From positions 1 to 57,294 of IMG/VR virus record IMGVR_UViG_3300017748_000009: DNA of 57,294 bases; one strand, 5' to 3'. The position numbers and the translations under genes were made by a program. Shown piece after piece: positions 273 to 48,993 of the stretch. The DNA comes from a virus. The notes under the pieces are model-generated. The model searched no databases, had not been told where the DNA came from, and was given only the letters and a program-made list of their open reading frames with translations. The first letter of the stretch is position 1; each line of letters opens with the position of its first letter.

Positions 273-710
273 TTATTTAAAGATTTCCATTATTTGATTT
301 AACTTATCTTCAATCTCGTTATGCTTTCGATACAAATCTTGGACATTGAAGGCACTCATACGAGCATGGTTTATAAATTCTAATAATATATATGGGTTAT
401 GTTTACCTGTACCCCCAATACTCCAAGTATCTAATTTGTGTTTGGTATATTGTAAGTCATAGGTTTTCCAATCATATATTTCAAACCTACCTTTGTTACC
501 TTCGGTATCAGTTATCTCAATGACCCAAGTCATTTGAACTTTGTCATCACCTGTCTGAATTTCAGAGGGACTGCCAAAAATAAATTTCAAATCACTATAA
601 TATATATTAGTTAAGGCATCTATTTTATGCCCACCTTGAAACGATGCATTAGCTTCGTCTTCTGTGAGAACTTTAATGGTGTTCCCTTCCCATTCTGTAA
701 TTTTTCTCAT
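273..710 (-). CDS. Hypothetical protein (145 aa)
   Basis: Unrecognised early protein. It is mixed alpha/beta in character, with a central stretch (about residues 60-85, MTWVIEITDTEGNKGRFEIY) that looks like paired beta strands, and a C-terminal helix rich in Asn, Glu and Lys. There is no signal peptide or membrane segment. The ATG at 710 overlaps the TGA of the upstream gene (ATGA), so it is translationally coupled to the 121-aa protein. A 48-aa frame follows after 6 bases. It is the third gene after the promoter at 1533-1564 and should be expressed with that early group. No function can be assigned. Confidence 0.8.
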   Translation of the reverse strand: MRKITEWEGNTIKVLTEDEANASFQGGHKIDALTNIYYSDLKFIFGSPSEIQTGDDKVQMTWVIEITDTEGNKGRFEIYDWKTYDLQYTKHKLDTWSIGGTGKHNPYILLEFINHARMSAFNVQDLYRKHNEIEDKLNQIMEIFK

Positions 711-1072
711 AACTCTGCTTCAAAATTTAATTGGGTTTCCGTTGGGTTATTATCAAACCATTCTTTGATTTGTTTACCCATACGATAATCAGCAAATTCC
801 ATCAAGTCTTCCTGACTAACACCATATTTTTTACAGATGTCATCATTATACCCAACTTCATTGTCGAACATCTTTGTTACTCTTTTTATACATCCTGTTT
901 GCTCGATGTCATTTAACTCCTTACATATATCTTCATAGCTGTCTTCTTTGTGGACAACGTAATCAATATAGTTAGACTCTTGGCTTACGGCTCCAAACCT
1001 TTCACCTGCATCGCTGTTTTGAACGGCAAACATAAATTTTCCATCTATGTCACCTGTGTAATACCTACCCAT
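707..1072 (-). CDS. Hypothetical early protein (121 aa), start set by ribozyme cleavage site
   Basis: The frame is open upstream to 1315, but that part lies inside the 116-aa gene and through a hammerhead ribozyme. The best start is the ATG at 1072. It follows the ribozyme cut site (1100/1099) by 27 bases and is preceded by the AAAACACTAC leader motif also seen at 1508 and 54656. The protein begins MGRYYTGDIDGKFMFAVQNS. From memory, this opening occurs in a family of small phage and algal-virus proteins of unknown function that start with a similar G-D-I-x-G-K-F-x-F-x-V-Q sequence. The C-terminal half is acidic and helical. It is followed by an ATGA overlap with the 145-aa gene. Confidence 0.8.
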   Translation of the reverse strand: MGRYYTGDIDGKFMFAVQNSDAGERFGAVSQESNYIDYVVHKEDSYEDICKELNDIEQTGCIKRVTKMFDNEVGYNDDICKKYGVSQEDLMEFADYRMGKQIKEWFDNNPTETQLNFEAEL

Positions 1073-1094: not shown

Positions 1095-1157
1095 ATACTG
1101 ACTATGTAGAAGTTGTCTACATAGTTTCGCCATAATCTCAATGGCTCATCAGAGTAT
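1095..1157 (-). ncRNA. Hammerhead ribozyme, type I (HHR1)
   Basis: Read on the minus strand. Stem I is 1157-1153 (ATACT) paired with 1099-1095 (AGTAT). The CTGATGA box is 1152-1146. Stem II is GCCAT 1145-1141 with ATGGC 1133-1129. The GAAA box is 1128-1125. Stem III is nine perfect pairs, 1124-1116 with 1110-1102, closed by a 5-nt loop. The cleavage triplet GTC ends at 1100, so the cut falls between 1100 and 1099. All invariant core bases of the hammerhead consensus are present. It starts directly after the TAA of the 116-aa gene and the cut lies 27 nt before the ATG at 1072. After cleavage the ribozyme stays on the upstream message as a hairpin-rich 3' end. Confidence 0.93.
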
Positions 1158-1508
1158 TTATTTATCTCTTGACAATTCGTAATCTGTGTCGCTATTGTCA
1201 TTGCATTCAGGACAAGGAGAGGTGTTGGCAAACTCACTTTCGTAAGATGATTGCCAAACGACCCCTTCTCCATCACACACATCACACAAATCTCTTTCCT
1301 GTTCCCACTCTTCAATCAATTCATCATCAAAGAAATAGTTAGTATAGTTGGACTCGCCATCCATTACAATATCTTTAGCGTACTCTTCCATATCGTATTT
1401 ATCCATAAATAAGTTTTCAGGGTCAATATGTTCTTCGGTGTCAAGATGTAGCCACCCTAATTCGTGACCATTTGTAATCATTATTTTATCAAAAATGTAG
1501 TGTTTCAT
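1158..1508 (-). CDS. Zinc-finger-like early protein (116 aa)
   Basis: Acidic protein with a DnaJ-type zinc-binding pattern near the C-terminus: CDVCDGEGV (about residues 76-84) and CPECN (about 98-102). These are two CxxC pairs about 20 residues apart, enough to bind one zinc ion. The N-terminal 70 residues are Asp/Glu-rich with no known motif. The ATG at 1508 is 25 nt from the -7 box of the promoter at 1533-1564 and has the AAAACACTAC leader motif, so it is first in its unit. Its TAA touches the stem I strand of ribozyme HHR1. It could bind a host protein or nucleic acid; function unknown. Confidence 0.82.
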   Translation of the reverse strand: MKHYIFDKIMITNGHELGWLHLDTEEHIDPENLFMDKYDMEEYAKDIVMDGESNYTNYFFDDELIEEWEQERDLCDVCDGEGVVWQSSYESEFANTSPCPECNDNSDTDYELSRDK

Positions 1509-1532
1509 GTCTGTAGTGTTTTAAATGTTCGA

Positions 1533-1564
1533 CAAATGTACGACAAAATTTCGACATTTCCAAA
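1533..1564 (-). promoter_or_regulatory. Early promoter of the 1158-1508 gene
   Basis: On the minus strand TTTG (1564-1561) is followed by exactly 20 bases and then TACATTTG (1540-1533). This matches the Bacteroidota pattern TTTG-N19/20-TAnnTTTG. The same -7 sequence and the same 20-base spacer occur at 4773-4804. The predicted transcript starts near 1527 and has a leader of about 20 nt with the AAAACACTAC motif. Confidence 0.72.
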
Positions 1565-1592
1565 CATTGTAGTGTTTTTTCTTATATATATA

Positions 1593-2744
1593 TTATACTT
1601 TTTCTTTTTGATTATTAAATCTATCTGCCCAACCTTCCCAATTTTCATAGCTTAACTTCTGTTGGTCGGTAACCTTCTCAAGACTAAATAAACTATCTCC
1701 AAAGTCATATACATTAAATTCAAGGCTACTTCCTGATTTGAATATTAAATCTATCTTTCTGAAGGTGTGGTTATATCTTCCATAACCTTTCTTAACAGTT
1801 GCTTTTGGATACTTCTCTTGCAACAACTCCTTAGCCTTATTAAATGCTTGTCTTTGTTTAACATAAGAGTCAAAACTCCATTGACTTTCTTTGTTGGTTT
1901 CAGCAACCTTTTTAAGCAGTCCTTTAGCTGAGTATTGTCTTTCAGTACCTACGATTGCATAGCTACAGTATTTGCCGTTTTTATAGCTTCTCCAACCATT
2001 ACTGTATGCATCTTTTGGCTCTGTCCATTCCCATTTTAAATATGGTGTTTCAACATTATAACTATTCACATATTTAAGGTATTTAACTTTAACATAAAGG
2101 TCTATGCTATGAACAGTAATAATATATTTACTATCACCTATTATAAAACTATACTCTGTTTCTCTGTCCTCTTTATCAACCTTTAGATTATCACCTTCAA
2201 CCCAACCTGCATCAATAAATGCTTGATGTTTAATTTTCTGTTCTTGGTTAATCTTTTCACCTGACTCAGCTATTTCTTTTATAGTTTTAAGATGGTTATT
2301 GGTATCCAATGGCTCTATATCCACCCAATGCTCTTTGAACTCATCAGTAACCTCTTTTTGGTCATATGGATTATTGAAGTCTATTTTGACAGTCTTCAAT
2401 GAGTCCTCAATACGTTTGATTAAATCATCTATTTGGCTCTTAGATTTCCAACCCAAAACACCTGAGCCGTTGTCATCAAAATCGCCATAGTAAAACTTGT
2501 CTGTAAACTCTTGGCTTTTTCCGTCATCAGTATCTTTAAATACTGCCACTTCAAATGAGATGTAGTACTCAGCCATATTGGGTTTGTAGTAGGACTCTTT
2601 ACCTGCCGTTGAGTACATACCCTCACCTGCTACAACCGATAGTTCATATTGACCTATTGTCAATGTACCTTGAACACCCTTCTCACCAAGAGCAGAATGG
2701 TTTTTCCAATTTATATCTTGGAAGTGGAAATTTGCTTTTTTCAT
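1593..2744 (-). CDS. Hypothetical protein (383 aa), early operon
   Basis: A large soluble protein of unknown function. The frame is open to a GTG at 2771, but those codons lie inside ribozyme HHR2. The ATG at 2744 (MKKANFHFQDINWKNH) lies 21 nt beyond the cut site and has the usual A/T-rich leader. The N-terminal 100 residues look beta-rich, with many Gly/Tyr (GTLTIGQYELSV, DKFYYGDFDDNGSG). The middle (about 130-290) is Lys/Trp/Tyr-rich, and the last 60 residues repeat an aromatic beta pattern (IDLIFKSGSSLEFNVYDFGD). No catalytic motif, membrane segment or Cys cluster is visible. It is last in the operon that starts at 4743. The promoter for the next gene group follows its stop. Confidence 0.8.
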   Translation of the reverse strand: MKKANFHFQDINWKNHSALGEKGVQGTLTIGQYELSVVAGEGMYSTAGKESYYKPNMAEYYISFEVAVFKDTDDGKSQEFTDKFYYGDFDDNGSGVLGWKSKSQIDDLIKRIEDSLKTVKIDFNNPYDQKEVTDEFKEHWVDIEPLDTNNHLKTIKEIAESGEKINQEQKIKHQAFIDAGWVEGDNLKVDKEDRETEYSFIIGDSKYIITVHSIDLYVKVKYLKYVNSYNVETPYLKWEWTEPKDAYSNGWRSYKNGKYCSYAIVGTERQYSAKGLLKKVAETNKESQWSFDSYVKQRQAFNKAKELLQEKYPKATVKKGYGRYNHTFRKIDLIFKSGSSLEFNVYDFGDSLFSLEKVTDQQKLSYENWEGWADRFNNQKEKV

Positions 2745-2758
2745 TTTATTTGATTTTA

Positions 2759-2814
2759 AGATTAAGACCACCTATGAAGGTGGTTTCGACCTATAAGGTC
2801 TCATCAGTTAATCT
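2759..2814 (-). ncRNA. Hammerhead ribozyme, type I (HHR2)
   Basis: Read on the minus strand. Stem I is 2814-2808 (AGATTAA) with 2765-2759 (TTAATCT), extendable by one G-U pair. The CTGATGA box is 2807-2801. Stem II is GACC 2800-2797 with GGTC 2791-2788, loop TTATA. The GAAA box is 2787-2784. Stem III is CCACC 2783-2779 with GGTGG 2772-2768, loop TTCATA. GTC ends at 2766, so the cut is between 2766 and 2765. The stop codon TAA of the 78-aa gene (2810-2808) is part of stem I, so coding and ribozyme share bases. The cut leaves a short unstructured leader before the ATG at 2744. Confidence 0.95.
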
Positions 2815-3044
2815 CTCGTTGGGTAAATATCTTCCCACCCATCTACTGAGTTGGGGTAAGCATATGTTCTTGGCTCTTTGTACGGCTCTTGTTCGTAAGG
2901 CTCTACCCAAAAATCTTGTTCTCCCCATCTTTCAATACATTCTGTTGCCTCTTGTTCTGCCTCTGCTGATGTTTTAAAGCCATCTTCCTGTATTACACTC
3001 AGACCAAATTCGTCTATTGTTACTACTTTGTACATTATTTTCAT
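2808..3044 (-). CDS. Hypothetical small acidic protein (78 aa)
   Basis: Unrecognised. The first 45 residues (KVVTIDEFGLSVIQEDGFKT...AEQEATECIERW) suggest a beta-beta-alpha arrangement. The C-terminus is rich in Glu, Pro and Tyr (EPYEQEPYKEPRTYAYP) and probably extended. The ATG at 3044 follows a TATATATATC leader that is repeated almost exactly before the next upstream gene. Only 17 bases separate it from that gene, and no ribozyme lies between them, so these two genes would remain on one message after processing. Its stop codon lies within ribozyme HHR2 stem I. Confidence 0.78.
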   Translation of the reverse strand: MKIMYKVVTIDEFGLSVIQEDGFKTSAEAEQEATECIERWGEQDFWVEPYEQEPYKEPRTYAYPNSVDGWEDIYPTRD

Positions 3045-3061
3045 GATATATATATATTAAA

Positions 3062-3415
3062 TTATAATTCTAATCTTCTCTCTTTGATGGCATCACAGAG
3101 TATCTCTCTATAGTCTTGGCTACCCCTTCTTATGGCTCCTACTACATCACCATCTAAGACGGCAGACATGAAGCCACCTTCACTTTTTTTCATGTGAAAT
3201 TTCATGTCCAACTCTTCGTTGTCCATCAGGTAATATGCACAACGACTGCCAATGTGAGAGTCTGTGCCTTGGTATAAAGCTACAAGCATTTGATACCCCT
3301 TAAATGAGGTAAGATATTCGTATTGGTGGTCTTTGTCCTTACGGCTCAAATAATGTGGAGTATAGCAATCGTTTAACTCTATTTTCATTTCGTCTTTAAA
3401 TGTTACTTTTTGCAT
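3062..3415 (-). CDS. Hypothetical protein (117 aa)
   Basis: Unrecognised soluble early protein with charged ends. The middle (about 35-60) contains SFKGYQMLVALYQGTDSHIG, a probable beta hairpin. A glycine-rich segment (GGFMSAVLDGDVVGAIRRGS, about 80-100) and a basic-acidic helix at the C-terminus follow. No zinc or nucleotide-binding motif. The ATG at 3415 sits 68 nt after the cut site of HHR3. Because HHR3 is type III, this message would begin with the ribozyme stems I and II as a structured 5' leader, then a run of TATATATATC just before the start codon. Confidence 0.78.
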   Translation of the reverse strand: MQKVTFKDEMKIELNDCYTPHYLSRKDKDHQYEYLTSFKGYQMLVALYQGTDSHIGSRCAYYLMDNEELDMKFHMKKSEGGFMSAVLDGDVVGAIRRGSQDYREILCDAIKERRLEL

Positions 3416-3439
3416 GATATATATATTAAATTAATATTA

Positions 3440-3488
3440 CTGTTTCGACCTTTTGGTCTCATCAGGACAGATACACATCTGCCGACAG
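3440..3488 (-). ncRNA. Hammerhead ribozyme, type III (HHR3)
   Basis: Read on the minus strand. Stem III is CTG 3488-3486 with CAG 3442-3440, plus the conserved A-U closing pair. The GTC triplet ends at 3484, so the cut lies between 3484 and 3483. Stem I is a closed hairpin, GGCAGAT 3483-3477 with ATCTGTC 3472-3466 (one G-U pair, loop GTGT). The CTGATGA box is 3465-3459. Stem II is GACC 3458-3455 with GGTC 3450-3447, loop AAAA. GAAA is 3446-3443. Stem III is short, so folding depends on stems I and II. It lies between ardC and the 117-aa gene. Cleavage leaves the ribozyme on the downstream message. Confidence 0.88.
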
Positions 3489-3489
3489 A

Positions 3490-3505
3490 GGGGTCTTTCG
3501 ACCCC
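3490..3505 (-). other. GAAA-tetraloop hairpin just 5' of ribozyme HHR3
   Basis: On the minus strand GGGGTC, GAAA loop, GACCCC form six perfect pairs. It ends about 5 nt before the HHR3 cleavage site and about 10 nt after the ardC stop codon. No run of T follows, so it is not a typical intrinsic terminator. After ribozyme cleavage it would sit at the new 3' end of the ardC message, where a stable hairpin could block exonucleases. This role is inferred. Confidence 0.75.
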
Positions 3506-3514
3506 CATTTGGAC

Positions 3515-4462
3515 TTACTCTCCAAGGATATAATCTACTGCCTTAGCTGACTTTGTCAGGGCTGATACTACTGCTTTCGCATCCTCTTTTTCAACTGCTT
3601 TCACCCATCCGTTGATATAGGCTTGACTGTTGCTTTCGTCATCTCCACAGTCTGTGCAGATACCTGCTACACCTGATAACACCATCGCACCACTCTCAGC
3701 AATTAACTCCTCAAATGCGTAATCTGCTCTGCTCTTGGTTAACATCTTTGCTGTTGTTACACCATCTCTGTTGAGCCTACTTTCGTGACCTGTGCTGTGT
3801 ACCATCTCATGAAATAATGTTTTATAGAAGTTATCAGAGTTGACAAATTGGCTCATTAACGGCATTACTATTATGTCTTTTAATGGTGAGTAACAGGCTC
3901 TGTCTCCTTCGACTTCTCTAATATCTAACTTAGGGTTGTCCTTCTTATAAACAGATACTATATTTTCTGCTGACTCGATAGGTTGAACATCTTTGTTTGT
4001 CTCTTCGTGTGGTCTCTTAGGAGTTAAACCTGTGCATTGTGCTATGTTCCATACTCTGTAGAAACGAAGATTAAAGTTAGTAAAGATGTCACTTTCGCTA
4101 CAATTTTCTGCTTTCATACATTCTCTTTTAGTCTTGTACCATTTCCCTGAGCCACCCATCGCTGTATAACTGATTAGCCAAAAATATACATCTGTTCCAC
4201 TTTCGCCCTTCTTAACTTTGCCACCTGAGGCTCCAACACTCTTGAAGGTTGACCACTCGTTGTACTCATATCCTTTGTCTGTCATCTCAGCATTTAAGAT
4301 AAAATTGTTAAACCCTTTGTAGGCTCTTCCTGAGGCATTGTTGATAGGAAAATTTAACCCTGCTTTCCATGGTTTAAACCATTGTAAGCCGTCTTTCTTT
4401 AGTCCATCGAGAAGAGTCTGCTTTACTTTCTCGGTTACATCCATTTTGATTTTCTGTGTCAT
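3515..4462 (-). CDS. ardC: ArdC-like antirestriction protein / zincin
   Basis: 315 aa with the two-domain layout of the ArdC family: an N-terminal ssDNA-binding region (about 1-140, including NASGRAYKGFNN and a WSTFKSVGASGGKVKKGE stretch) and a C-terminal zinc metallopeptidase. The zinc site HEMVH is at 218-222, followed by H226 (HSTGHESRL) and a later FEELIAESGA helix that should supply the third ligand. ArdC proteins protect incoming DNA from restriction and may be delivered or made early. The gene lies between ribozymes HHR4 and HHR3, so it would be released as a single-cistron message. The ATG at 4462 follows a leader with AAAACACACACA, similar to the motif at other early genes. Confidence 0.88.
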   Translation of the reverse strand: MTQKIKMDVTEKVKQTLLDGLKKDGLQWFKPWKAGLNFPINNASGRAYKGFNNFILNAEMTDKGYEYNEWSTFKSVGASGGKVKKGESGTDVYFWLISYTAMGGSGKWYKTKRECMKAENCSESDIFTNFNLRFYRVWNIAQCTGLTPKRPHEETNKDVQPIESAENIVSVYKKDNPKLDIREVEGDRACYSPLKDIIVMPLMSQFVNSDNFYKTLFHEMVHSTGHESRLNRDGVTTAKMLTKSRADYAFEELIAESGAMVLSGVAGICTDCGDDESNSQAYINGWVKAVEKEDAKAVVSALTKSAKAVDYILGE

Positions 4463-4492
4463 TGTGTGTGTTTTAAATTAATATTTATTATT

Positions 4493-4544
4493 CCTGTTTC
4501 GCCTTCTTTGGCTCATCAGCACAGGGTTATCACCTGTGGACAGG
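4493..4544 (-). ncRNA. Hammerhead ribozyme, type III (HHR4)
   Basis: Read on the minus strand. Stem III is CCTG 4544-4541 with CAGG 4496-4493 plus the A-U pair. GTC ends at 4539, so the cut lies between 4539 and 4538. Stem I is a closed hairpin, CACAGG 4538-4533 with CCTGTG 4525-4520 (7-nt loop). The CTGATGA box is 4519-4513. Stem II is GCC 4512-4510 with GGC 4503-4501. GAAA is 4500-4497. It lies between the 58-aa gene and ardC, closest of the four to the operon promoter. The downstream ardC message would start with the ribozyme hairpins. Confidence 0.9.
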
Positions 4545-4560
4545 GGGACATTTCTGCCCC
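4544..4560 (-). other. GAAA-tetraloop hairpin just 5' of ribozyme HHR4
   Basis: On the minus strand GGGGCA, GAAA loop, TG(T)CCCC form six pairs with one bulged T. It lies between the stop codon of the 58-aa gene and the HHR4 cut site and shares one base with stem III of the ribozyme. Position and loop match the hairpin before HHR3. It would cap the 3' end of the first cistron after cleavage. Confidence 0.65.
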
Positions 4561-4566
4561 TATCTG

Positions 4567-4743
4567 CTACCCCTCGAAGCCGTATAAATCGCCAAGGGTT
4601 TGGAAGATTTCATCTCTTCCGTTGTCGTATTCGATAGCTGATATAAAGCCTGATGCATAATCTCTCTCGAGTCTGTCCTCAAGAAAAAATACCTGTTGTG
4701 CCATCTCTGTTGTGTTACCTGTTGTACTGATTGAATGTGTCAT
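4567..4743 (-). CDS. Small hypothetical protein (58 aa), first gene of the early operon
   Basis: ATG at 4743, TAG at 4567. The product starts MTHSISTTGNTTEMAQQVFF. The first dozen residues are Thr/Ser-rich, followed by an amphipathic helix with many Glu/Asp/Arg (LEDRLERDYASGFISAIE) and an acidic end. No known family. It is the first cistron after the promoter at 4773-4804 and is followed at once by a hairpin and ribozyme HHR4. Its position suggests a very early product or a small regulator. The coding call rests on the promoter, the start and the clean fit to the next element. Confidence 0.68.
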   Translation of the reverse strand: MTHSISTTGNTTEMAQQVFFLEDRLERDYASGFISAIEYDNGRDEIFQTLGDLYGFEG

Positions 4744-4772: not shown

Positions 4773-4804
4773 CAAATGTAGTTTAAATATATATACACTC
4801 CAAA
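4773..4804 (-). promoter_or_regulatory. Main early promoter, minus strand
   Basis: TTTG (4804-4801), exactly 20 bases, then TACATTTG (4780-4773) on the minus strand, 30 nt before the first ATG at 4743. This is the Bacteroidota promoter pattern. The -7 box and spacer are the same as at 1533-1564. It should drive the ribozyme-containing operon. Confidence 0.75.
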
Positions 4805-5780: not shown

Positions 5781-7400
5781 ATGAATCCAAAAGAACTGCA
5801 CTTTGATAGTGTCGGGCGAAAGAAGCTACTTAGTGGAATAACCCAAATAGCTAAAGCTGTTAAATCTACATTAGGACCCCAAGGGAACACAGTCTTAATA
5901 GAATCACAAGAACACATAGGAGGAATTACTGTGACGAAAGATGGAGTTACAGTAGCTAAATCAATTAATCTATTAGACCCTGTAGAAAACCTAGCGGTTA
6001 GAATAATGAAGGAAGCAGCAGATAAGACTGCAACCTCAGCCGGTGATGGAACAACTACAGCCATTGTATTAACTGAAAGTTTAGTATCTAAAGGTTTAGA
6101 GCTTATAGATGAAAAAGTTAATAGAACAGAAGTATTAAAGTTATTACAAGCTGAGTCTAATACTATTGTTGGTAAATTAAAAAAGAAATCAAAAAAAATA
6201 TCCGGTAAAAAACTAAAAGACGTTGCTGTTATTTCAGCAAACAATGATGAGTTTATTGGAGACTTAATATCTAAAGTATATAATAGCGTTGGTAAAGATG
6301 GTATTGTTACAGTTGAAAAGTCAAATAATCATGAGACATATTTTGAAACGACTAAAGGTATTAAAATTGACAGGGGATATAGTTCTCCACTATTTATTAA
6401 TGACCATAAACACGATGAGTGTATATATGAAAATATAAAAGTTTTAGTAGCTGATGCCGAGATAAGTAATATACTTCAAATAGAAAATGTATTAAAACAA
6501 GTAATTAATAATAAAGACAAGTTACTTATTATTGCTCCTTGCTCTGCAGGATTTACAAACACCATGGCAGCAAATGTAATGAAGAACGGATTAAAGTTAG
6601 TTAGTATACAACCACCCGACTTTGGATACAGACAACACGAGCTTATGAATGACATAGCTCTTGCTGTTGGCGCAACATACTTTAGCGAAAAGACAGGTGA
6701 CGATTTAAGTCTCATCGGTTATGACGATTTGGGTCATTGTTCCAAGGTGATAGTTGGGCGTGATTCAACAGTCGTCATAAAAGATGAGCAAGAAAACAGC
6801 GACTTAATAAAAGAAAGAGTTAAGGAATTATGGGGTGCCCATGATATAAGTAAAAGAAAACAAGACAAATCTTTTATTGAGAAACGTATTGCATCACTTA
6901 CAGGTGGTATTGGTGTTATGTATGTTGGTGGAAACACAGACTTAGAGCAAAAAGAATTATACGATAGGGTTGATGATGCTGTATGTGCAGTAAAGTCTGC
7001 GCTAGAAGAAGGAATACTACCCGGTGGTGGAGTGAGCTTATATAGAGAAGGACTATATTATGAAAACATAAATCCCTTTATTGGTGTTGATGAGCCTAAA
7101 GAATCACACGATTATCACACAAAAAAAATTGCTTACGCAATTTTAAGCTATGCCCTTAAGTCTCCGCTACTACAAATACTTTCTAATGCAGGTATGGATA
7201 ATGATATGTATTCAATTACAGACAATCCTGACGATGGGTATGATGTAAAGAATGAGAAGTGGGGTAATATGATGTCAATGGGAATTATAGACCCAATGAA
7301 AGTTACAAGGTCTGCTTTACAAAATGCAATAAGTGTAGCGATTACATTACTATCTACAAATGCAATAGTAACCATGATAAGAAAAAAGAATGAATCATGA
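5781..7400 (+). CDS. groEL: Chaperonin GroEL (phage-encoded)
   Basis: 539 aa, full chaperonin length. The equatorial ATP-binding motif GDGTTT is at 88-93, preceded by TKDGVTVAK (52-60). The ATPase aspartate in the DDAV...EEGILPGGG segment near 398-416 is present. The N-terminus (GRKKLLSGITQIAKAVKSTLGP) is typical. The apical domain is divergent and the Gly/Met-rich C-terminal tail of bacterial GroEL is absent; the protein ends MIRKKNES. GroEL folds proteins in an ATP-driven double ring with GroES, and phage copies are thought to fold virion proteins. It has its own promoter and is followed by an ATGA-overlapping membrane protein and a GroES gene, so the pair is probably co-expressed. Confidence 0.97.
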   Translation: MNPKELHFDSVGRKKLLSGITQIAKAVKSTLGPQGNTVLIESQEHIGGITVTKDGVTVAKSINLLDPVENLAVRIMKEAADKTATSAGDGTTTAIVLTESLVSKGLELIDEKVNRTEVLKLLQAESNTIVGKLKKKSKKISGKKLKDVAVISANNDEFIGDLISKVYNSVGKDGIVTVEKSNNHETYFETTKGIKIDRGYSSPLFINDHKHDECIYENIKVLVADAEISNILQIENVLKQVINNKDKLLIIAPCSAGFTNTMAANVMKNGLKLVSIQPPDFGYRQHELMNDIALAVGATYFSEKTGDDLSLIGYDDLGHCSKVIVGRDSTVVIKDEQENSDLIKERVKELWGAHDISKRKQDKSFIEKRIASLTGGIGVMYVGGNTDLEQKELYDRVDDAVCAVKSALEEGILPGGGVSLYREGLYYENINPFIGVDEPKESHDYHTKKIAYAILSYALKSPLLQILSNAGMDNDMYSITDNPDDGYDVKNEKWGNMMSMGIIDPMKVTRSALQNAISVAITLLSTNAIVTMIRKKNES

Positions 7401-7558: not shown

Positions 7559-7870
7559 ATGATAAAAAAAGAATGGCAATGGATGTCAGACTTTATAATT
7601 AAAAAAAAAATAATGAAGCCAATAGCTAGATATATTTTAATTGAGCCAATAGAAGAAGAGATAAAAACTGAATCAGGTATTTTATTAAGTGGTGATGAAG
7701 CTCATAAAAGAAGATACCAAAAAGGTAAGGTACACTCTATAGGTCATCATGTTGAATCAATTAATGCTGATGATATAATTTATTATGACCACCGAAGTGC
7801 TCACACCTTACTGATGGAAGGAAGTAAAATTACAGTCATTCAAGAGAAGGACGTAGTAATTGTTTTATAA
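7559..7870 (+). CDS. groES: Co-chaperonin GroES-like
   Basis: The core begins at residue 19 (MKPIARYILIEPIEEE), the usual first strand of GroES. Then come a mobile-loop sequence (KTESGILLSGDEAHKRRYQKGKV) with the hydrophobic GILL tripeptide that contacts GroEL, and the second half of the barrel (SINADDIIYYDHRSA...). The frame starts at 7559, directly after the previous stop. An internal ATG at 7613 would give a standard-length 85-aa GroES, and I think either start is possible. It forms a seven-fold lid on GroEL. The 3' end overlaps the convergent gene at 7836 by 35 bases. Confidence 0.88.
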   Translation: MIKKEWQWMSDFIIKKKIMKPIARYILIEPIEEEIKTESGILLSGDEAHKRRYQKGKVHSIGHHVESINADDIIYYDHRSAHTLLMEGSKITVIQEKDVVIVL

Positions 7871-41700: not shown

Positions 41701-44700
41701 TAATTTATTTTTTAATAGAAAAGGGAAACCTAAGCGTAAATTAAATTCTATAAAGCAAGGTGTTAGAAATCAAGTTCTTAATGCAGCAACAAAAATTAGT
41801 AAGTCTATAACAAAAGTTTTACCTGACACTAAAATAATATTACACGAATCAAGCAAAGAGTTTAATAAAGCTACCGGAACTGACGGAAGAGGTTTCTTTT
41901 CGTTTGATGATAATATTATTCATATAGATATGAATAAAGCAAATACCTCTACAGTATTTCATGAGGTCGGTCACGCATTTATATTTAATACTCTTGGAGA
42001 AACCAACACCGCTAATGCATTAAAAACATTATTAACTTCGGCTGAAAAAGGTCTTGATAGTAATAGTTTATTGGCTAGGCAAATAAAAAGATTTGGACAG
42101 GCTTATGAATCACAAGGACCTACAGTTCAAAACGAAGAAAGATTAGCCGAACTTTTTGGGCAACTAGCTGCAAACTACGACACATTAAATACTCCTACCA
42201 AAAATGCTGTAGTTAATTTTATTAAAAAAATTGGTAACTCTATAGGATTTAATTTTGATATTATAACAGAGCAAGACTCTAAGATAATTGAAATGTTAAA
42301 CTCATTATCAGGTAAGGTAAGAGAAGGTAGAGAAGTTTTGGCAGAAGATTTATCTGTCCTAAAAGATTTAAGAGAAACAGGTACAGAAAATATAGGAACC
42401 CCTACAGAAATTACTAAACCAAAAGGGGGGAGAGAACAGAGGAATATAAACTTTAAAGACTCCTATCCCAATTCATTAATATCTTCAAAGAATAAAATTG
42501 ACATCAATAAACTTATAGATGATATTGTAGATAAAAAACAAAAAGTTTGGTTTTGGAAAGCTGACCAATTAGGTATAAATCCAAACACCGGTATAGATGG
42601 TGGACCAAGTTTTGCTCTGCAAACACCCGGAGATATTTGGGCAAGTAGTGTAAACCCTACAACAATTCAGAAGAATATAAATAATTCTGACTATATTTTT
42701 ATTATTAGTGGGTCTCCAAATGTCATGCATCTCTTTAATAAAGTTGTATTTGATAATATTACAGATGGATTACCTTCATTTGAAACTTTTAAAACTGAAG
42801 CACTAGAAACTAATCCTGTTAAAGCTATAAGAGAAACATTAGAAAAATACAACAGTTTTGAGGAAATAAGAGATAATACAGACGGTACGGTTAGGAAGAG
42901 ATTCTTAATAGGACACCAAGAGCAATCAAAGAAAAACACTAAATATGCTCAATATGTTAGGGATAACGGTGGGTTTATAGAAACAGAAAGCTTTATTGAT
43001 GGATTCTTTAGAGAGAATGAGTTTCAAATAAATGATATTATGTTGGTATTAAAACCAACAGGTGTCAGAACAGATTCTAATCACTCTACATATTCTAATA
43101 CAATTGAGGGGGATGTTATTGGTGTACCAAACAAAGTAGTTGATGCCTTTACTATAATGCCAATTCCTATACAACAACGTGCTAAAGATTTAGGAAGGGT
43201 ACAGCAGGGGGAGGTTATATCTCCATTGGGTTCCGGAGTTAAAAGTATATCAAAGCCTATAAGAACTAGAGGTAGAGAACAAAAGTCTATAGAACAAATA
43301 GGAAGATTTTTTAATATGAATGATTCCGGCTTTATGCCATCTGTTATTAATACTTCTCAAATTAAAAGAATGTTACCGCCATCTGTAAGTTTAAAACGTG
43401 CTAGAAGTGGGTCTTATTACTTATCAGGTCCAAGAGGTAAAATAAATCCTTTTTCTCCTAGAGGTAGACAACAAAAAGAAATAGTAGACATAATTACTGA
43501 AGGAAGGGATGGAAACTTTAGAGATGAAGTGATTAAAGACTTTTTAATTAGAGTTAAAAAATTCCCGGCAAAAGTGGTTAATGATTTAATGGAAGTATCA
43601 GTAGATATTTTTGGTACCCTTCCTAATAGTTTCAGGAATTTACAAGACGGATTTAAGTCAGGTGTAAAACTATATCAAAGAGCAAAAGCTTACGAGCAAA
43701 AATTAATTAAAGCAAACTCAAAGAAAAAAGTAAAACTTACTGAGCAACAAATTGCAGACCAAACAATAGAATTTTTAGAGAAGCAACCTGAGTTTAAAAA
43801 AGAGGGTGATGGCAGTAAGTCATTGACCACTAGACAAGCAGCTATGCTTTATGAGTTTCAAAAAAGTGTCGGAACAAGACCAAGTGAAAATGTACAAGAG
43901 AAACTTACAGAAGCAAGGAAACTTTTATTTGCTAGAAAAAGAGGTGCAAGAGATTTACAAAAAATAAAATCTGCACTAAGAAACTTTATAAGAAAGTCAT
44001 TACCAAAAGATATATATACTAGGTCTGAAGTTATGAAGCTTGTTAGAGCAGTTACAAATGCACAAGAAAATAATATTGAAAATATATTTGATGAGGTAAT
44101 TGAGTTTGTAACAAAGAAAAATAACACTCGTTTAGAAAAGACTATAGATAATATTCTTAATGGTAAATATATAACTCGTATTGGTGGTAGAATAAAAGCT
44201 GCGAAGGTTAGTTTAAATATTAAGGAGAGAATAGAAAAAATTAAAAAAGACAGACTTAATAAATCTGCTACTGCTGAAGATATAGATAAAGAAAACGAGG
44301 CATTAACTAAAGAGTTTAATTCTATTAACCAAAAGTCTGTAAAAACAGAAGGAGATTATTCTAGAATGGAGGATATAACTCTTCTTTTAAATATAAATAA
44401 CTCTTTACAGATGGAGGACACCGATGTAAATAAAACAGGTGCTTTAGATATGTCAGCAAAAATTCTTGAAGACATGATTGTTTTAGGTAGGTCGGAGTTA
44501 AAACAAGAGTTAGAAGAGTCGAATAAAAAATATAATGAACAATCTTCTACAGCAATAGAAGAAATAACAGGGCAAAAGGTTGATATGGGAGACCCTGATG
44601 CTAAGTCACAGCTTGATTTAGATAATGTTAAAAGACTAAACGCAAGACAAAATAAAACTAAAAATGTAATTAAAAAGTTTATAAACCAATTCACTAGCAA

Positions 44701-46882
44701 ACTCACGCAATTCTTTAATGAAGCTGAAGCTTTAGATGGTTTAATGGATTTAGTTTCTAAATTACCGGGAGAAATGTTTGGAGGTAAACTTCAAGAATTA
44801 GTATCCAATCGTGTTGATACATCAAGTAGAAAATATAAGCAAAGGATGATGCAGCAAGAGGAAATACTAGACCAAAAACTTAAGGAAATATATGGTAAGA
44901 AATGGAGAAATGAAGTTAGGTCACATAATAAATTAACTAATGACCCTACTTATATATTAGACCCTGCTGCTTTAGAAAAAGCTCAAAAAGATTTTGATGA
45001 TAAAAAAATATCTGCCTATGAATTAAGGCAGGTTATGAAAGAGAATGAAGTTTATTTAAGTCAAAATGAAATGGCATACTACTATAATCTTTACAAAGAC
45101 CCTGCAAATAGAGCATCATTTGAAGCTACATTTGGTAAGGATTATTCTAGAATTATGGAGGAGATGGAATCTAAAATGAAAGACGGTGTAAAAGAGTTTG
45201 CTGATTGGCAGGTAAATGAATATTATCCTTCATTGTACCCTTACTATAATGAGGTATATAAAAGCTTGTATAGAACTAATATGCCATGGAATCAATATTA
45301 TTCCGGTATGATATACAGACAAGGAGTTGAGCAGGAGTCTATAGATTTATTGTCTGATAAATCAGTTTATAACACATCAGTAGGAGCTTCATCAACAAAG
45401 TTTAGGGTAAATAATAATTTACCTATTAGAAAAATGAATTCCATGAATGTAATGTTTACTTACTTAAGGGACATGGAATACTTCGCTGCATACGGTGAGA
45501 CTATGAGAGATATAAATAAAATATTCTCTAACAAACTAGTAAAAGAAGCAATTAGTTCTATTCACGGTAATTATGTAAATCGTTTGATAGACAATATGAT
45601 TACTAAAATAGCAAACAAAGGTGTGAGAAATAGCCCTGCTGATAGGGTTGTAAACGCACTTAACAATATGTTTATCATTTCTAGGATTGGATTGAACCCA
45701 ACTGTTATGATAAAGCAGTTAACATCTATGATTACATACGCTAATGATATTGGCTACGCTAATTGGTTGAAGTATTCATTAAAGAATCTACCTCAAATAA
45801 AGAAAACTTTTAAAGAAATTTCTAAAAATTCTGTTTATATGCAGGATAGAAACAGACAATCCATAACAAGAGTTATTGAGTCTTACTCCGAAGCTAATAT
45901 GGCTGAGTTTGTCCCTAATCAGTATTGGGATTACTATGTTAACTTCGTAATGTTCACTACTAAGTTTGGTGACAAGGCTGCAATTTATTTGGGAGGTATG
46001 CCTAACTATTTATATTATAAAGACCAAGGTTTAAAACGTGGATTAAGTGAAGAACAAGCACAGAAAGAAGCCGTGCTTAAGTTTGAAAAAGACACAAAGA
46101 GAACACAGCAGTCTATGGACTTACAAGATAGGGACTACTATCAAACTGCCGGTGCATTACAGAGAGGTTTAAATATGTTTATGACTACTCCTAAACAATA
46201 CCTTAGAAAAGAAATACAAGCCACGAGAAATTTATATCGAAAGGTAAAGGCATGGGATTCTAAAGCAGGTAAGGGAACATTAGGTGAGAACCTTAGAACA
46301 TTTGCTACTTATCATGTTTTTGCTCCGGTATTATTTCAGTATGTTACATTAGGATTACCCGGAATATTAAGAGGAGTAAGAGATGAAGATGAGGAAGATT
46401 TATTAAGGGCTGCAGTCGTTGGAAACTTAAACGCATTATTTATTGTAGGAGACATCGTTAAAATGTTGGCTGATGAAATACAAAATAAAGGTTTCCCTGT
46501 ACAAGCTAAAAGTATTGCCCCTTTGATGGTAATGCAAAGGTTAATTACACTTTATCAAAGATTCGATAAAACTAAAGACCCTGTTAAAAAACAACAACAC
46601 TTTGAAAAGTTTGTTGCAGAGCTAACGAGTGTTCCCGGAATTCCTGCTACACAAATCAAAAAGTTTATTGACAACATGGATGATATGGGTAAAAATGGGG
46701 ACATTGGTACAGACATATTGAGATTACTTAACTATTCTAAATATCAGATTGAGGGTCCTGCTAATAAAAAATCTACAACACCCAAGACAACAATCGAAAA
46801 AAATATTGAGTATCAAAAAGAGCAGAAAAGAAAAAACAAACAAACTAAAAAGCTTGGTGGCTATCAGGCACCAAAAAGATAA
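38729..46882 (+). CDS. Giant polyvalent virion protein with zincin protease domain (2717 aa)
   Basis: The largest gene in the window. The N-terminal 120 residues (LQQLYDLYLNEGLLTEATPF, then EVFSQADENQINSLYELGKN) begin with two short repeats with an F-x-V/T-F-S-x-A pattern. Residues 200-1000 are mostly helical with a Gly/Ala membrane-like patch near 350-370 and 735-760. A metallopeptidase signature HEVGH lies at 1078-1082 (STVFHEVGHAFIF), with E in the following ERLAELFGQLA helix. Long coiled coils fill 1600-2100. The C-terminal 600 residues (SADRVVNALNNMFIISRIGL-like segment, GLNPTVMIKQLTSM) match the conserved C-terminal domain of phage polyvalent proteins. Probably packaged and ejected at infection. 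Confidence 0.82.
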   Translation: MNDKLQQLYDLYLNEGLLTEATPFEVFSQADENQINSLYELGKNQGLFETTTVDVFSAAWGPVAETVTVEEGEKKNLNFSNPDNQLPEGTPSSTSISEEFNINSPSYLQKPETSTNPFTGTILSDQEVDEFQVSKNNITSDLTSDRQEEDVVAEMNYKFGDYGFQFEQTNIGDAMNVKAANGEEIKIVLDAFGIPFVNEDIGLFANKRAKKLRDFLEKNRVESERIFSERTKSQERKLKKIQNMDELKSLNTLFNSQVDNFSTDVRNFSKEQLRLDKIYQDNFVGLTPTELANSQDYAKYTQLKNNLNTEKQRLANQQKSFQVRGRELNGIAADYYLMLKKSKGDYFDVAEGIERLGSTLAEGIGGIVSGTAGDLAAFTVDKIERIRGTFDAGKSRRAADEHIDYATEILIDNTDGYALNSNLISSLMGDGDTSADKEAISNIDKYLKKGKLNVIDQDKLKSELDKLSPEMLQVVLENTVSKDGDDLHSATESIFRNTSMKAVQEYEGTEITREMPGRPNILQTETITSYDKAKSAALGDANNFNRYTGMLNNMDLESGLRDNIRTALTVISGETDEQAMTRKIVKNEGSFMQKALHGVAYSIPAFIGIYKTVAQKAIAKGGPLVVRELKKYASDKNNVSRTVRLLGQSMDAQMGKMANNPNFDNISLDEQRTVAVPVGIATAVLENIGFRNITSSSPFVQNMLVRGLNKLGVVKKGTEGKLLAKLIREDVNNLVGRGLLVIGAGGAAEFETGALQFVAEDLSERIYNFNKEKQYFQTPDSFTGYMGELLYQGALEAVGGKIMAVPTAISAMATNPKNLDLVTDEAFEMFKGMLGDTQYKKFFTTDLKQRVADPNDELTQKDADTMLETFNIIEGLMPQVPGDLNLQQQRLALSLVMERQALKTEIEPLAPELALKQNARIEEITEQLKDITLLANAEQDAAQKAESAIPEFGETKSETQELQEGDEVTTQEAEDFASAIGDETESSSTTNNLFFNRKGKPKRKLNSIKQGVRNQVLNAATKISKSITKVLPDTKIILHESSKEFNKATGTDGRGFFSFDDNIIHIDMNKANTSTVFHEVGHAFIFNTLGETNTANALKTLLTSAEKGLDSNSLLARQIKRFGQAYESQGPTVQNEERLAELFGQLAANYDTLNTPTKNAVVNFIKKIGNSIGFNFDIITEQDSKIIEMLNSLSGKVREGREVLAEDLSVLKDLRETGTENIGTPTEITKPKGGREQRNINFKDSYPNSLISSKNKIDINKLIDDIVDKKQKVWFWKADQLGINPNTGIDGGPSFALQTPGDIWASSVNPTTIQKNINNSDYIFIISGSPNVMHLFNKVVFDNITDGLPSFETFKTEALETNPVKAIRETLEKYNSFEEIRDNTDGTVRKRFLIGHQEQSKKNTKYAQYVRDNGGFIETESFIDGFFRENEFQINDIMLVLKPTGVRTDSNHSTYSNTIEGDVIGVPNKVVDAFTIMPIPIQQRAKDLGRVQQGEVISPLGSGVKSISKPIRTRGREQKSIEQIGRFFNMNDSGFMPSVINTSQIKRMLPPSVSLKRARSGSYYLSGPRGKINPFSPRGRQQKEIVDIITEGRDGNFRDEVIKDFLIRVKKFPAKVVNDLMEVSVDIFGTLPNSFRNLQDGFKSGVKLYQRAKAYEQKLIKANSKKKVKLTEQQIADQTIEFLEKQPEFKKEGDGSKSLTTRQAAMLYEFQKSVGTRPSENVQEKLTEARKLLFARKRGARDLQKIKSALRNFIRKSLPKDIYTRSEVMKLVRAVTNAQENNIENIFDEVIEFVTKKNNTRLEKTIDNILNGKYITRIGGRIKAAKVSLNIKERIEKIKKDRLNKSATAEDIDKENEALTKEFNSINQKSVKTEGDYSRMEDITLLLNINNSLQMEDTDVNKTGALDMSAKILEDMIVLGRSELKQELEESNKKYNEQSSTAIEEITGQKVDMGDPDAKSQLDLDNVKRLNARQNKTKNVIKKFINQFTSKLTQFFNEAEALDGLMDLVSKLPGEMFGGKLQELVSNRVDTSSRKYKQRMMQQEEILDQKLKEIYGKKWRNEVRSHNKLTNDPTYILDPAALEKAQKDFDDKKISAYELRQVMKENEVYLSQNEMAYYYNLYKDPANRASFEATFGKDYSRIMEEMESKMKDGVKEFADWQVNEYYPSLYPYYNEVYKSLYRTNMPWNQYYSGMIYRQGVEQESIDLLSDKSVYNTSVGASSTKFRVNNNLPIRKMNSMNVMFTYLRDMEYFAAYGETMRDINKIFSNKLVKEAISSIHGNYVNRLIDNMITKIANKGVRNSPADRVVNALNNMFIISRIGLNPTVMIKQLTSMITYANDIGYANWLKYSLKNLPQIKKTFKEISKNSVYMQDRNRQSITRVIESYSEANMAEFVPNQYWDYYVNFVMFTTKFGDKAAIYLGGMPNYLYYKDQGLKRGLSEEQAQKEAVLKFEKDTKRTQQSMDLQDRDYYQTAGALQRGLNMFMTTPKQYLRKEIQATRNLYRKVKAWDSKAGKGTLGENLRTFATYHVFAPVLFQYVTLGLPGILRGVRDEDEEDLLRAAVVGNLNALFIVGDIVKMLADEIQNKGFPVQAKSIAPLMVMQRLITLYQRFDKTKDPVKKQQHFEKFVAELTSVPGIPATQIKKFIDNMDDMGKNGDIGTDILRLLNYSKYQIEGPANKKSTTPKTTIEKNIEYQKEQKRKNKQTKKLGGYQAPKR

Positions 46883-47037
46883 TGCCATTTAAAAAAATAG
46901 GAAAGAATAAAAACGAGAGTCCGAGTGGTAAGATATTTTCCGATGCACAAGTCAGGTTGTATTATGCTACAGATGGATTTAAAAAATCTCCTAAGAAACC
47001 TAAGGGATTAAGACCATCTAAGAGATACGGAGGTTAG
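46882..47037 (+). CDS. Small basic phage protein (51 aa), last plus-strand gene
   Basis: MPFKKIGKNKNESPSGKIFS... then DAQVRLYYATDGFKKSPKKP and a basic end (KGLRPSKRYGG). From memory, proteins with the pattern K-K-I-G-K-N-x-x-x-S-P-S-G-x-x-x-T/S-x-x-Q-V-x-L-Y-Y-A-T are common micro-proteins in marine phages. It is coupled to the giant gene by TAATG and overlaps the convergent gene at 47034 by four bases. No terminator is visible between the convergent units. Confidence 0.78.
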   Translation: MPFKKIGKNKNESPSGKIFSDAQVRLYYATDGFKKSPKKPKGLRPSKRYGG

Positions 47038-47447
47038 TAAAATTTGAAGTAACGAAAAGTCTTTTGCTTTGGATAATAAATCATCAGCTCTTGGTCGTTG
47101 ACCGCACCCTCACGAGGCTTCCTTCCTCCCCACCTTACTTCACCTTTAATATCAGTTGGTTTTCCATATATAATACCATCATCACACGCCCATATAATAA
47201 CAGGATTTAATCTTTTATCACAAAGCTTTACTACTTTTCGTGCTGCCACAGGCAACGGATATGCCTCTTCTAAAGTCCTGTGTCTACCCTTTACCTCTGC
47301 ATAAGCAATTAATTTTCCGACTTTATTATAAACTCGGTAGTCCACATCGTTAGGGTCTAGCTTTTTATAAGAACCTTCAAACCTGTTTACAAAAAATTCA
47401 ATAGCTTTTTTTTCTCTAGATAAATCCTTATCGTTTTCAAACCTCAT
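47034..47447 (-). CDS. PD-(D/E)XK-type nuclease (137 aa)
   Basis: Restriction-endonuclease-like core: a helix with KKAIEFFVNRFEGSY (about 13-27), then D36 (VDYRVYN) and the E51-V-K53 motif (LIAYAEVKGRHRT), the metal-binding D...ExK pattern, followed by VVKLCDKRLNPVIIWACDDG with further strands. It has no DNA-recognition domain, so it could be a resolvase-like or single-strand nuclease. The ATG at 47447 overlaps the stop of the HNH gene (ATGA); the open frame upstream of that ATG belongs to the HNH gene. Confidence 0.78.
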   Translation of the reverse strand: MRFENDKDLSREKKAIEFFVNRFEGSYKKLDPNDVDYRVYNKVGKLIAYAEVKGRHRTLEEAYPLPVAARKVVKLCDKRLNPVIIWACDDGIIYGKPTDIKGEVRWGGRKPREGAVNDQELMIYYPKQKTFRYFKFY

Positions 47448-47833
47448 TTTGAATGTATTTCTGCATGACACCTACTGCATAAGCACATACATTTATTTAT
47501 TTCTTTTAAAATATTTTCTTTAGAATACCCTTTTGAACTACCATCCGCTACACAAAAATCTTTATTGTCTTGAGTATGGTGAAATTGTAAAGCATTTATT
47601 GAAAAGTTAGGATGGGTAGCTTTTGAGTAACCACACATACTACATTTTAATTTATTTTTTATTTTACTTAACCAATCTCTTCGCCTTTTCCTTCTTTTAA
47701 TTTTATAAATTCTTTTGCAATTCTTACATAAGTTATCCATTATGTCTACACCTGCTTTAGTTTTACGCCCACCCTTATAAAAGTTGTCGATTGTTTTTAC
47801 TTCACTACAGCTCCTGCATTTCTTAGATTTCAT
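47444..47833 (-). CDS. HNH endonuclease (129 aa)
   Basis: An N-terminal zinc finger (C6, C9, C36, C39) is followed by a basic linker (IKRRKRRRDWLSKIKNKLKC) and an HNH core: C64-x2-C67, HH at 85-86 (ALQFHHTQD), N113, and C119-x2-CH at 122-123 (CLCSRCHAEIH). All conserved HNH residues are present. Such proteins are homing endonucleases or packaging and restriction nucleases. Here it is a free-standing gene at the end of the replication block, overlapping the PD-(D/E)XK gene by 4 bases. Confidence 0.9.
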   Translation of the reverse strand: MKSKKCRSCSEVKTIDNFYKGGRKTKAGVDIMDNLCKNCKRIYKIKRRKRRRDWLSKIKNKLKCSMCGYSKATHPNFSINALQFHHTQDNKDFCVADGSSKGYSKENILKEINKCMCLCSRCHAEIHSK

Positions 47834-48005
47834 CTTGCATAGAATCTGAAAGGGCTTTAAGTTTTTTTTGAAATATATTTATGGTATGCTTTGTAACTTT
47901 ATATTCTTTGTCGCAGAGACTTTCATATATCTCACAATTAAACCCATTTAATTCATCCATCAATAGATTAATGTGCTGAATTCTTTCTTGTTCTAGGGCT
48001 GTCAT
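47823..48005 (-). CDS. Small helical protein (60 aa)
   Basis: MTALEQERIQHINLLMDELN... with two helices, Cys 24 and 31, and an acidic end (LKALSDSMQDEI). It overlaps the HNH gene by 11 bases. Function unknown. Confidence 0.68.
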   Translation of the reverse strand: MTALEQERIQHINLLMDELNGFNCEIYESLCDKEYKVTKHTINIFQKKLKALSDSMQDEI

Positions 48006-48013
48006 TTATTTTT

Positions 48014-48262
48014 TTATTTATCCATAGCATCTAATAACCTTGACCCAAGTTCTGAATCAACAGTTTTAATAGCTTTATATATTTTTCTTGAGTTTTTTCT
48101 AACCTCTAATCTTTCAGATTTCAGAGAGTCACTTCCTAAGTTAGTGTACTGTGAGCAATCTATTCGTAAAAGTTCATCTGTAATTTTTCTTACTGACCAA
48201 CTTTTAAATTCAATTATTTTATCTATATCTGAAAAAGTATAGCTCATTTGATTAAGTTTCAT
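48014..48262 (-). CDS. Small helical protein (82 aa)
   Basis: MKLNQMSYTFSDIDKIIEFK..., three or four charged helices with Trp at 22 and Cys at 35 (SVRKITDELLRIDCSQYTNL). It has a typical TTTAATTT-like leader. It lies 8 bases upstream of the 60-aa gene. No known domain; a small DNA- or host-protein-binding role is possible. Confidence 0.68.
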   Translation of the reverse strand: MKLNQMSYTFSDIDKIIEFKSWSVRKITDELLRIDCSQYTNLGSDSLKSERLEVRKNSRKIYKAIKTVDSELGSRLLDAMDK

Positions 48263-48281
48263 ACAATTTATAATTTATTTT

Positions 48282-48677
48282 TTAGTCATGCAACTGCTTC
48301 GTGCTTTTTTTTAATTCATCATATGCAGACTCAAGCTCTAAATAAGCCATTCTTAAATCTGTAAGAGAGTAATCTAATACAGGGTGGTTTGTGGATTCAA
48401 ATAAGTTTTTACACCTTAAATAAGACAACTCTAAATCTTTTTCTTGAGCAAGAAGCCAAGGTGCTTTTTTTATAACATGAATTACAGTTGCGTGATTTTT
48501 ACCTAGGAACTCACCTATTTTACTGTAACTTCCACCATATTTTCGTGCTATAAAATAAAACACTAATCTAGCATTAGTATATATTATTTTTCTACTCGGA
48601 CTTGCTATATCAATTCCAAACTCTGTATCTACTATCTTTTTAAGATAATTCAGATGTGTTGTTGTACGTTTCTTCAT
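48282..48677 (-). CDS. DnaA domain IV-like DNA-binding protein (131 aa)
   Basis: Residues 28-75 match DnaA C-terminal domain: RKIIYTNARLVFYFIARKYG then SYSKIGEFLGKNHATVIHVI. The HATVIH signature corresponds to the DnaA DHSTVIHA recognition helix that contacts DnaA boxes. The AAA+ domain is absent. A helical tail (LTDLRMAYLELESAYDELKK) follows. From memory, many Bacteroidota phages carry such stand-alone proteins next to nucleases. It probably binds phage origin or host oriC-type boxes. It overlaps the upstream gene by 38 bases. Confidence 0.82.
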   Translation of the reverse strand: MKKRTTTHLNYLKKIVDTEFGIDIASPSRKIIYTNARLVFYFIARKYGGSYSKIGEFLGKNHATVIHVIKKAPWLLAQEKDLELSYLRCKNLFESTNHPVLDYSLTDLRMAYLELESAYDELKKSTKQLHD

Positions 48678-48993
48678 TTAATTTAATTGTTTTTTTTTCA
48701 TTATAATAATCTAAATACTCATCAACATCTATAGGCTGTATGTCTAAAAATATAGGAGGCTCACCATGTTCCCTAATATATTCTACTTTAAAAAAATATG
48801 GAGATGAAAGTGCATTTGAAACACCTGCTATTTCTTGAGTCCAATGTTCTTGAGATGGTAACTGCTCGACAACTCTATCTACTTGGGTAGCAATTTGTAT
48901 TCCCAACTTTGGGTCCAACTCTCTAATTTTATCGACAAACCAATCATCAACTTCGTAATGTTTAATCTCCCCTATATACTTCTGTCTTTGCAT
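48640..48993 (-). CDS. Hypothetical protein (117 aa)
   Basis: MQRQKYIGEIKHYEVDDWFV... mixed alpha/beta, including VEYIREHGEPPIFLDIQPID (strand-turn-strand) and VDEYLDYYNEKKTIKLNEET. No known motif. It overlaps the VRR-NUC gene by 32 bases at its start and the DnaA-like gene by 38 bases at its end. Confidence 0.65.
   Translation of the reverse strand: MQRQKYIGEIKHYEVDDWFVDKIRELDPKLGIQIATQVDRVVEQLPSQEHWTQEIAGVSNALSSPYFFKVEYIREHGEPPIFLDIQPIDVDEYLDYYNEKKTIKLNEETYNNTSELS

What the first reader, a model, noticed from the sequence alone, without database searches (positions are those of the whole stretch)
1095..4544. Four complete hammerhead ribozymes placed between genes of one early phage operon
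Seen directly: on the minus strand, four intergenic sites each carry CTGATGA, stem II, GAAA, a GTC cleavage triplet and base-paired stems I and III in hammerhead order (1095-1157, 2759-2814, 3440-3488, 4493-4544). The stems differ in sequence yet keep pairing, which argues for selection on structure. Known: single hammerheads occur in phages and many other genomes. Inference: here they form a set that cuts one polycistronic early RNA into separate messages, an RNA-processing role usually done by RNase III or RNase E. I do not know of a described phage operon with four such cutters in about 3.4 kb.
Basis: partly seen in the sequence, partly recalled or inferred. Interest (0 to 1): 0.97.

Follow-up and report, generated by a model that had tools for sequence, protein, structure and literature searches.

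The report
Self-cutting RNA array in phage operon
A phage gene cluster carries four small self-cutting RNAs (hammerhead ribozymes) between its genes; such arrays were already known in prophages, but a survey done here suggests a shared purpose, which is to give each upstream message a protective hairpin at its cut end.

Summary
Four complete hammerhead ribozymes lie on the minus strand between genes, two type III (4493-4544, 3440-3488) and two type I (2758-2815, 1095-1157). Chance expectation is about 0.05 per window. Relatives keep them at the same junctions with many compensatory changes. The novelty claim does not hold: Perreault et al. 2011 described clustered prophage hammerheads, including a cleaving triple array around ardA, and proposed that they cut long transcripts into shorter mRNAs. 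My IMG/VR survey finds many arrays; the cultured Streptomyces phage Janus has 11. "One polycistronic RNA" is also doubtful, because a second promoter-like site lies inside the cluster. The survey did reveal a rule I did not find in the papers held. Type I and II ribozymes abut the upstream stop codon. Type III sits about 28 nt beyond it, usually with a flush hairpin (69% vs 17% in shuffles; weaker but significant in a second set). Type III is the only permutation leaving no hairpin of its own on the upstream product. Upstream 3' ends are therefore equally structured in all three types; downstream 5' ends are not. I propose these modules form protected mRNA 3' ends. Cleavage and stability were not tested.

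The parts
4773..4804 (-). Promoter-like site P1 (TTTG-N20-TACATTTG), upstream of the first gene of the cluster
   Evidence: Consensus match only
4567..4743 (-). 58-aa gene, unknown function, first of the cluster
   Evidence: ORF; no family hit
4545..4560 (-). GC hairpin between the stop codon and site 4, flush with the ribozyme
   Evidence: Fold of the spacer
4493..4544 (-). Hammerhead site 4, type III, cut between 4539 and 4538
   Evidence: Scan; 36.4 bits to RF00008; orthologues upstream of ArdC in L005, L006, L012, L030, L031
3515..4462 (-). ArdC-like antirestriction / zincin-metallopeptidase gene, 315 aa
   Evidence: phrog_7245 E 1e-58; ArdcN and MPTase-PolyVal
3489..3506 (-). GC hairpin between the ArdC stop codon and site 3, flush with the ribozyme
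   Evidence: Fold of the spacer
3440..3488 (-). Hammerhead site 3, type III, cut between 3484 and 3483
   Evidence: Scan; 39.5 bits to RF00008; orthologues in L004, L005, L012; covariation
3062..3415 (-). 117-aa gene, unknown function
   Evidence: ORF
2808..3044 (-). 78-aa gene; its stop codon lies inside stem I of site 2
   Evidence: ORF
2758..2815 (-). Hammerhead site 2, type I, cut between 2766 and 2765
   Evidence: Scan; 22.4 bits to RF00163; orthologue in L004 near 1514-1570 with stem I replaced in full
1593..2744 (-). 383-aa gene, unknown function
   Evidence: ORF
1533..1564 (-). Promoter-like site P2 (TTTG-N20-TACATTTG) inside the cluster
   Evidence: Consensus match only
1158..1508 (-). 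116-aa gene; stop codon directly abuts site 1
   Evidence: ORF; weak DnaJ-type zinc finger
1095..1157 (-). Hammerhead site 1, type I, cut between 1100 and 1099
   Evidence: Scan; 29.4 bits to RF03152, below cut-off; orthologue in L004 3172-3234
707..1072 (-). 121-aa gene, phrog_33624, unknown function
273..710 (-). 145-aa gene, unknown function, overlaps the previous gene by 4 nt
   Evidence: ORF

Best explanation
The four sites are genuine hammerhead ribozymes that cut nascent transcripts between genes. The selected outcome is most likely 3'-end formation for the upstream gene: each cut leaves the upstream mRNA ending in a stable hairpin plus a 2',3'-cyclic phosphate, and gives the next gene its own short leader with a 5'-OH. 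In types I and II the ribozyme's own hairpins stay on the upstream piece, so it can abut the stop codon. Type III leaves its hairpins on the downstream piece, so a separate hairpin is placed between stop codon and ribozyme. Shown: sequence, structure, covariation, junction placement, and the permutation-dependent hairpin rule. Inferred: cleavage in the cell, protection from 3' exonucleases, and independent gene dosage per message.
For: Exactly four sites against about 0.05 expected. Same junctions occupied in relatives. In L004 site 2 all six stem I pairs and three stem III pairs differ from the window on both sides while the core stays the same (pair counts read by eye). Type III covariation. 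Non-redundant viral survey of 351 ribozymes: stop-to-ribozyme distance median 0 nt (I), 3 (II), 28 (III); flush hairpin in 69% of type III (17% shuffled), 11% of type I (17%), 15% of type II (15%); Fisher p = 9e-17. Second sample from genome contigs: 37/79 type III against 5/30 others, p = 0.004. Last 45 nt of the upstream product: mean MFE -15.7 (I), -15.3 (II), -16.0 (III) kcal/mol; first 45 nt of the downstream product: -4.4, -14.5, -15.5, so only the 3' end is equalised. No U-tract follows the type III hairpin (at least 5 T in 8 nt in 3 of 55), so it is not an ordinary terminator. 80 of 81 multi-ribozyme viral loci have all copies on one strand, median spacing 696 nt. In the window no intrinsic terminator was found on the minus strand other than stem III of site 2. 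Cleavage of a comparable array in vitro and in E. coli is published (PMC3088659).
Against: No RNA or biochemical data for this phage. About 30% of viral and half of genome contigs type III sites lack a strictly defined flush hairpin (some have bulged ones). The hairpin could instead help folding. The array is not essential: 71 of 79 distant ArdC loci have none, and 3 of 7 junctions here lack one.
Confidence: 0.6

Rival explanations
1. Segmentation only: the ribozymes cut the transcript into single-gene messages to give the downstream genes clean 5' ends, and 3' hairpins are incidental.
For: Cut-to-start distances are short and regular: lower quartile to median 25-38 nt in type I, 21 and 27 nt at the window's type I sites.
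Against: The downstream 5' end is not equalised across permutations, whereas the upstream 3' end is; the type III spacer hairpin has no role under this view.
Confidence: 0.18
2. The type III hairpin is a folding aid: it insulates or stacks on the short stem III.
For: It is exactly flush (offset 0 in 33 of 38 cases).
Against: Insulation should be equally useful for the outer stems of types I and II, which lack it.
Confidence: 0.12
3. Translation-coupled switch: a ribosome ending at the stop codon blocks type I and II folding, so cutting reports on translation of the upstream gene.
For: Type I often overlaps the stop codon (lower quartile -6 nt); site 2 here contains it.
Against: Type III is spaced away from the stop; co-transcriptional cutting may precede the ribosome.
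Confidence: 0.06
4. Selfish or neutral remnants without a function for the phage.
For: Patchy distribution.
Against: Covariation at fixed junctions, strand and junction placement.
Confidence: 0.04

Closest known systems
Clustered hammerhead ribozymes of prophages, including the triple array around ardA of Agrobacterium tumefaciens (Perreault et al. 2011, PMC3088659)
   Same: Several hammerheads flank single genes on one strand; an antirestriction gene is among them; proposed to process long phage RNA; active in vitro and in E. coli.
   Different: ArdC rather than ArdA; four sites with mixed types I and III; no host genome known. In the passages read, that paper does not mention the stop-codon spacing or the type III spacer hairpin.
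Hammerhead array of Streptomyces phage Janus (NC_054660.1), found here
   Same: Same-strand ribozymes at gene junctions right after stop codons.
   Different: Eleven, all type II, unannotated in the record; 8 pass the Rfam cut-off.
RNase III or RNase E processing of phage polycistronic mRNA (established knowledge, not tested here)
   Same: Cuts one transcript into several messages with hairpin ends.
   Different: Here the RNA would cut itself, leaving a 2',3'-cyclic phosphate and a 5'-OH.

Membership tests
Hammerhead ribozyme (type I / type III) | Conserved core CUGANGA ... GAA with A15.1-U16.1 | tested here: met
   All four sites
Hammerhead ribozyme (type I / type III) | Three helices in hammerhead order, open end at stem I or III | tested here: met
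   Stems I/II/III of 6/3/5, 7/4/4, 8/5/7, 5/5/10 pairs
Hammerhead ribozyme (type I / type III) | UH cleavage triplet (GUC) | tested here: met
   GUC at all four sites
Hammerhead ribozyme (type I / type III) | Stems conserved by compensatory change | tested here: met
   for type III; two-sequence comparison by eye for site 2
Hammerhead ribozyme (type I / type III) | Reaches Rfam's gathering score (a library cut-off, not a defining property of the family) | tested here: not met
   39.5, 36.4, 25.7 bits against 48.5; 22.4 against 34
Hammerhead ribozyme (type I / type III) | Mg-dependent self-cleavage | not testable with these tools
   Needs a bench assay
Clustered prophage hammerheads (Perreault 2011) | Several hammerheads in close proximity flanking single genes on one strand | tested here: met
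   Four in 3.4 kb, all at gene junctions
Clustered prophage hammerheads (Perreault 2011) | Transcribed together and cut in cells | not testable with these tools
   No RNA data; promoter-like site P2 suggests two transcripts

The most novel reading that the evidence does not exclude
Hammerheads in phage (and candidate-phyla) operons are a general, protein-free mRNA 3'-end-forming device: whichever permutation is used, the upstream message is left with a hairpin end, and type III ribozymes carry a dedicated companion hairpin for this. This would answer the open question of what prokaryotic hammerheads are for.
Probability: 0.5. Interest if true: 0.82.

Novelty: new member of a known kind. Interest (0 to 1): 0.6.

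Why it matters
The role of prokaryotic hammerheads is stated to be open (PMC6155905). The rule found here predicts which RNA end matters and can be tested directly, because a cultured phage (Janus) carries eleven of them. If true, phages use self-cutting RNA in place of terminators and RNases to make stable single-gene messages.

Tried and rejected
Rfam at gathering score: no hits in the window, uninformative because its cut-offs are strict. Relatives through the 383-aa protein: none. Relatives of the 121-aa protein: 11 loci, the only ribozymes being in the same contig as L004. Idea of a special link to antirestriction genes: not supported, only 2 of 120 downstream proteins are ArdC and no family dominates; the ArdC samples were chosen by ArdC, so they cannot show enrichment. 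Two-sequence MAFFT alignment of site 2 failed because the stems have no sequence in common. My first scan printed type I coordinates from the core rather than the outer stem; corrected later. Spacer hairpin as intrinsic terminator: rejected, no U-tract.

Full report
OBSERVATION. A scan for the hammerhead core with three stems and a U-H cut finds four sites in the window, all on the minus strand and at the stated places; shuffled windows give 0.05 per window. Sites 4 and 3 are type III, sites 2 and 1 type I. The predicted first bases after the cuts are 4538, 3483, 2765 and 1099. Rfam at gathering score is silent, but the E-value search hits all four places with hammerhead models, best 39.5 bits and E 4e-5.

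SURROUNDINGS. In transcription order: 58-aa gene, site 4, ArdC-like antirestriction gene, site 3, 117-aa gene, 78-aa gene, site 2, 383-aa gene, promoter-like site, 116-aa gene, site 1, 121-aa gene, 145-aa gene. Four of seven junctions have a ribozyme; the others are an 18-nt gap, a 4-nt overlap, and an 84-nt gap that holds a TTTG-N20-TACATTTG match. The same motif with the same spacing precedes the first gene. This is the Bacteroidota promoter form from my own knowledge and suggests a Bacteroidota host and two transcripts. No intrinsic terminator appears on the minus strand except stem III of site 2. The rest of the window has terminase, portal, virion, primase/helicase and GroEL genes, so it is a tailed phage.

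RELATIVES. ArdC relatives keep type III sites on both sides of ArdC (L005, L012) or on one side (L004, L006, L030, L031). In type III relatives 96.5% of cells pair and 6 of 16 pairs change on both sides. Site 2 of L004 keeps the core, though its stem II is imperfect and the scanner missed it; read by eye, all six stem I pairs and three stem III pairs differ on both sides, while the flanking DNA is 85-94% identical. Distant L015 and L018 carry type I ribozymes right after the ArdC stop codon, where the window has type III plus hairpin.

PRIOR ART. Perreault et al. 2011 describe multiple hammerheads flanking genes in prophages, suggest processing into single-gene mRNAs, and show cleavage of a triple array around ardA in vitro and in E. 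coli (PMC3088659). A later review calls the prokaryotic role an open question (PMC6155905), and a 2023 paper restates the clustering (PMC10085705). The window is therefore a new member of a known kind.

SURVEY. Two pattern scans of IMG/VR gave 240 loci, 81 of them with two or more ribozymes; in 80 all copies share one strand, with a median spacing of 696 nt. One locus is Streptomyces phage Janus. My scanner finds 10 type II sites there between annotated genes; Rfam confirms 8 above cut-off, one of which my scanner missed, making 11.

HAIRPIN RULE. In 351 non-redundant ribozymes from the session's viral loci (which include the ArdC relatives), type I and II abut the stop codon (median 0 and 3 nt), type III lies 28 nt away. 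A perfect hairpin of at least 5 pairs ends within 3 nt of the ribozyme in 69% of type III against 17% in shuffles, and at or below shuffled level in types I and II. Non-ribozyme junctions of the same loci have structured 38-nt stretches in 33% of cases against 84% for type III. A second sample from prokaryote genomes, with many candidate-phyla bacteria, shows the same, more weakly (47% against 17.5% shuffled). The last 45 nt of the upstream product are equally structured in all types, the first 45 nt of the downstream product are not. Both window type III sites have the hairpin; both type I sites abut or overlap the stop codon.

MECHANISM. The simplest reading is that the selected product is the 3' end of the upstream message: hairpin plus cyclic phosphate, which should resist 3' exonucleases. 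Type III is the only permutation that would leave no hairpin of its own there, and it alone has an added one. An insulation or folding role would predict hairpins for all types. Cleavage and stability remain to be shown.

LIMITS. Simple ORF calls, permissive stems (G-U allowed), no phylogenetic correction beyond removal of similar loci, the literature held is open-access only (the 2014 and 2015 ribozyme-association papers cited in PMC10085705 could not be read), and no RNA data.

Noticed in passing
L349 (NC_054660.1) 41934-49150, minus strand: Cultured Streptomyces phage Janus carries 11 unannotated type II hammerheads between consecutive genes; 107 Streptomyces phage records match this region.
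   Followed up: partly
L350-L466 (genome contigs): Many candidate-phyla (Patescibacteria) contigs carry type III hammerheads with an upstream flush hairpin; none of the papers listed by the search links the two.
   Followed up: partly
L428 1-5798: A 5.8 kb contig binned as Aliivibrio holds about eight or nine type I hammerheads with near-identical stem I (GATTAA/TTAATC), as in window site 2 and L117.
   Followed up: no
window 5781-7400: Phage-encoded GroEL-like chaperonin, followed by a small GroES-like ORF at 7559-7870 (the GroES reading is from the sequence by eye).
   Followed up: no
window 1502-1580 and 1073-1090: Repeated AACACTACA leader motif before several start codons, possibly a translation or transcription signal.
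   Followed up: no
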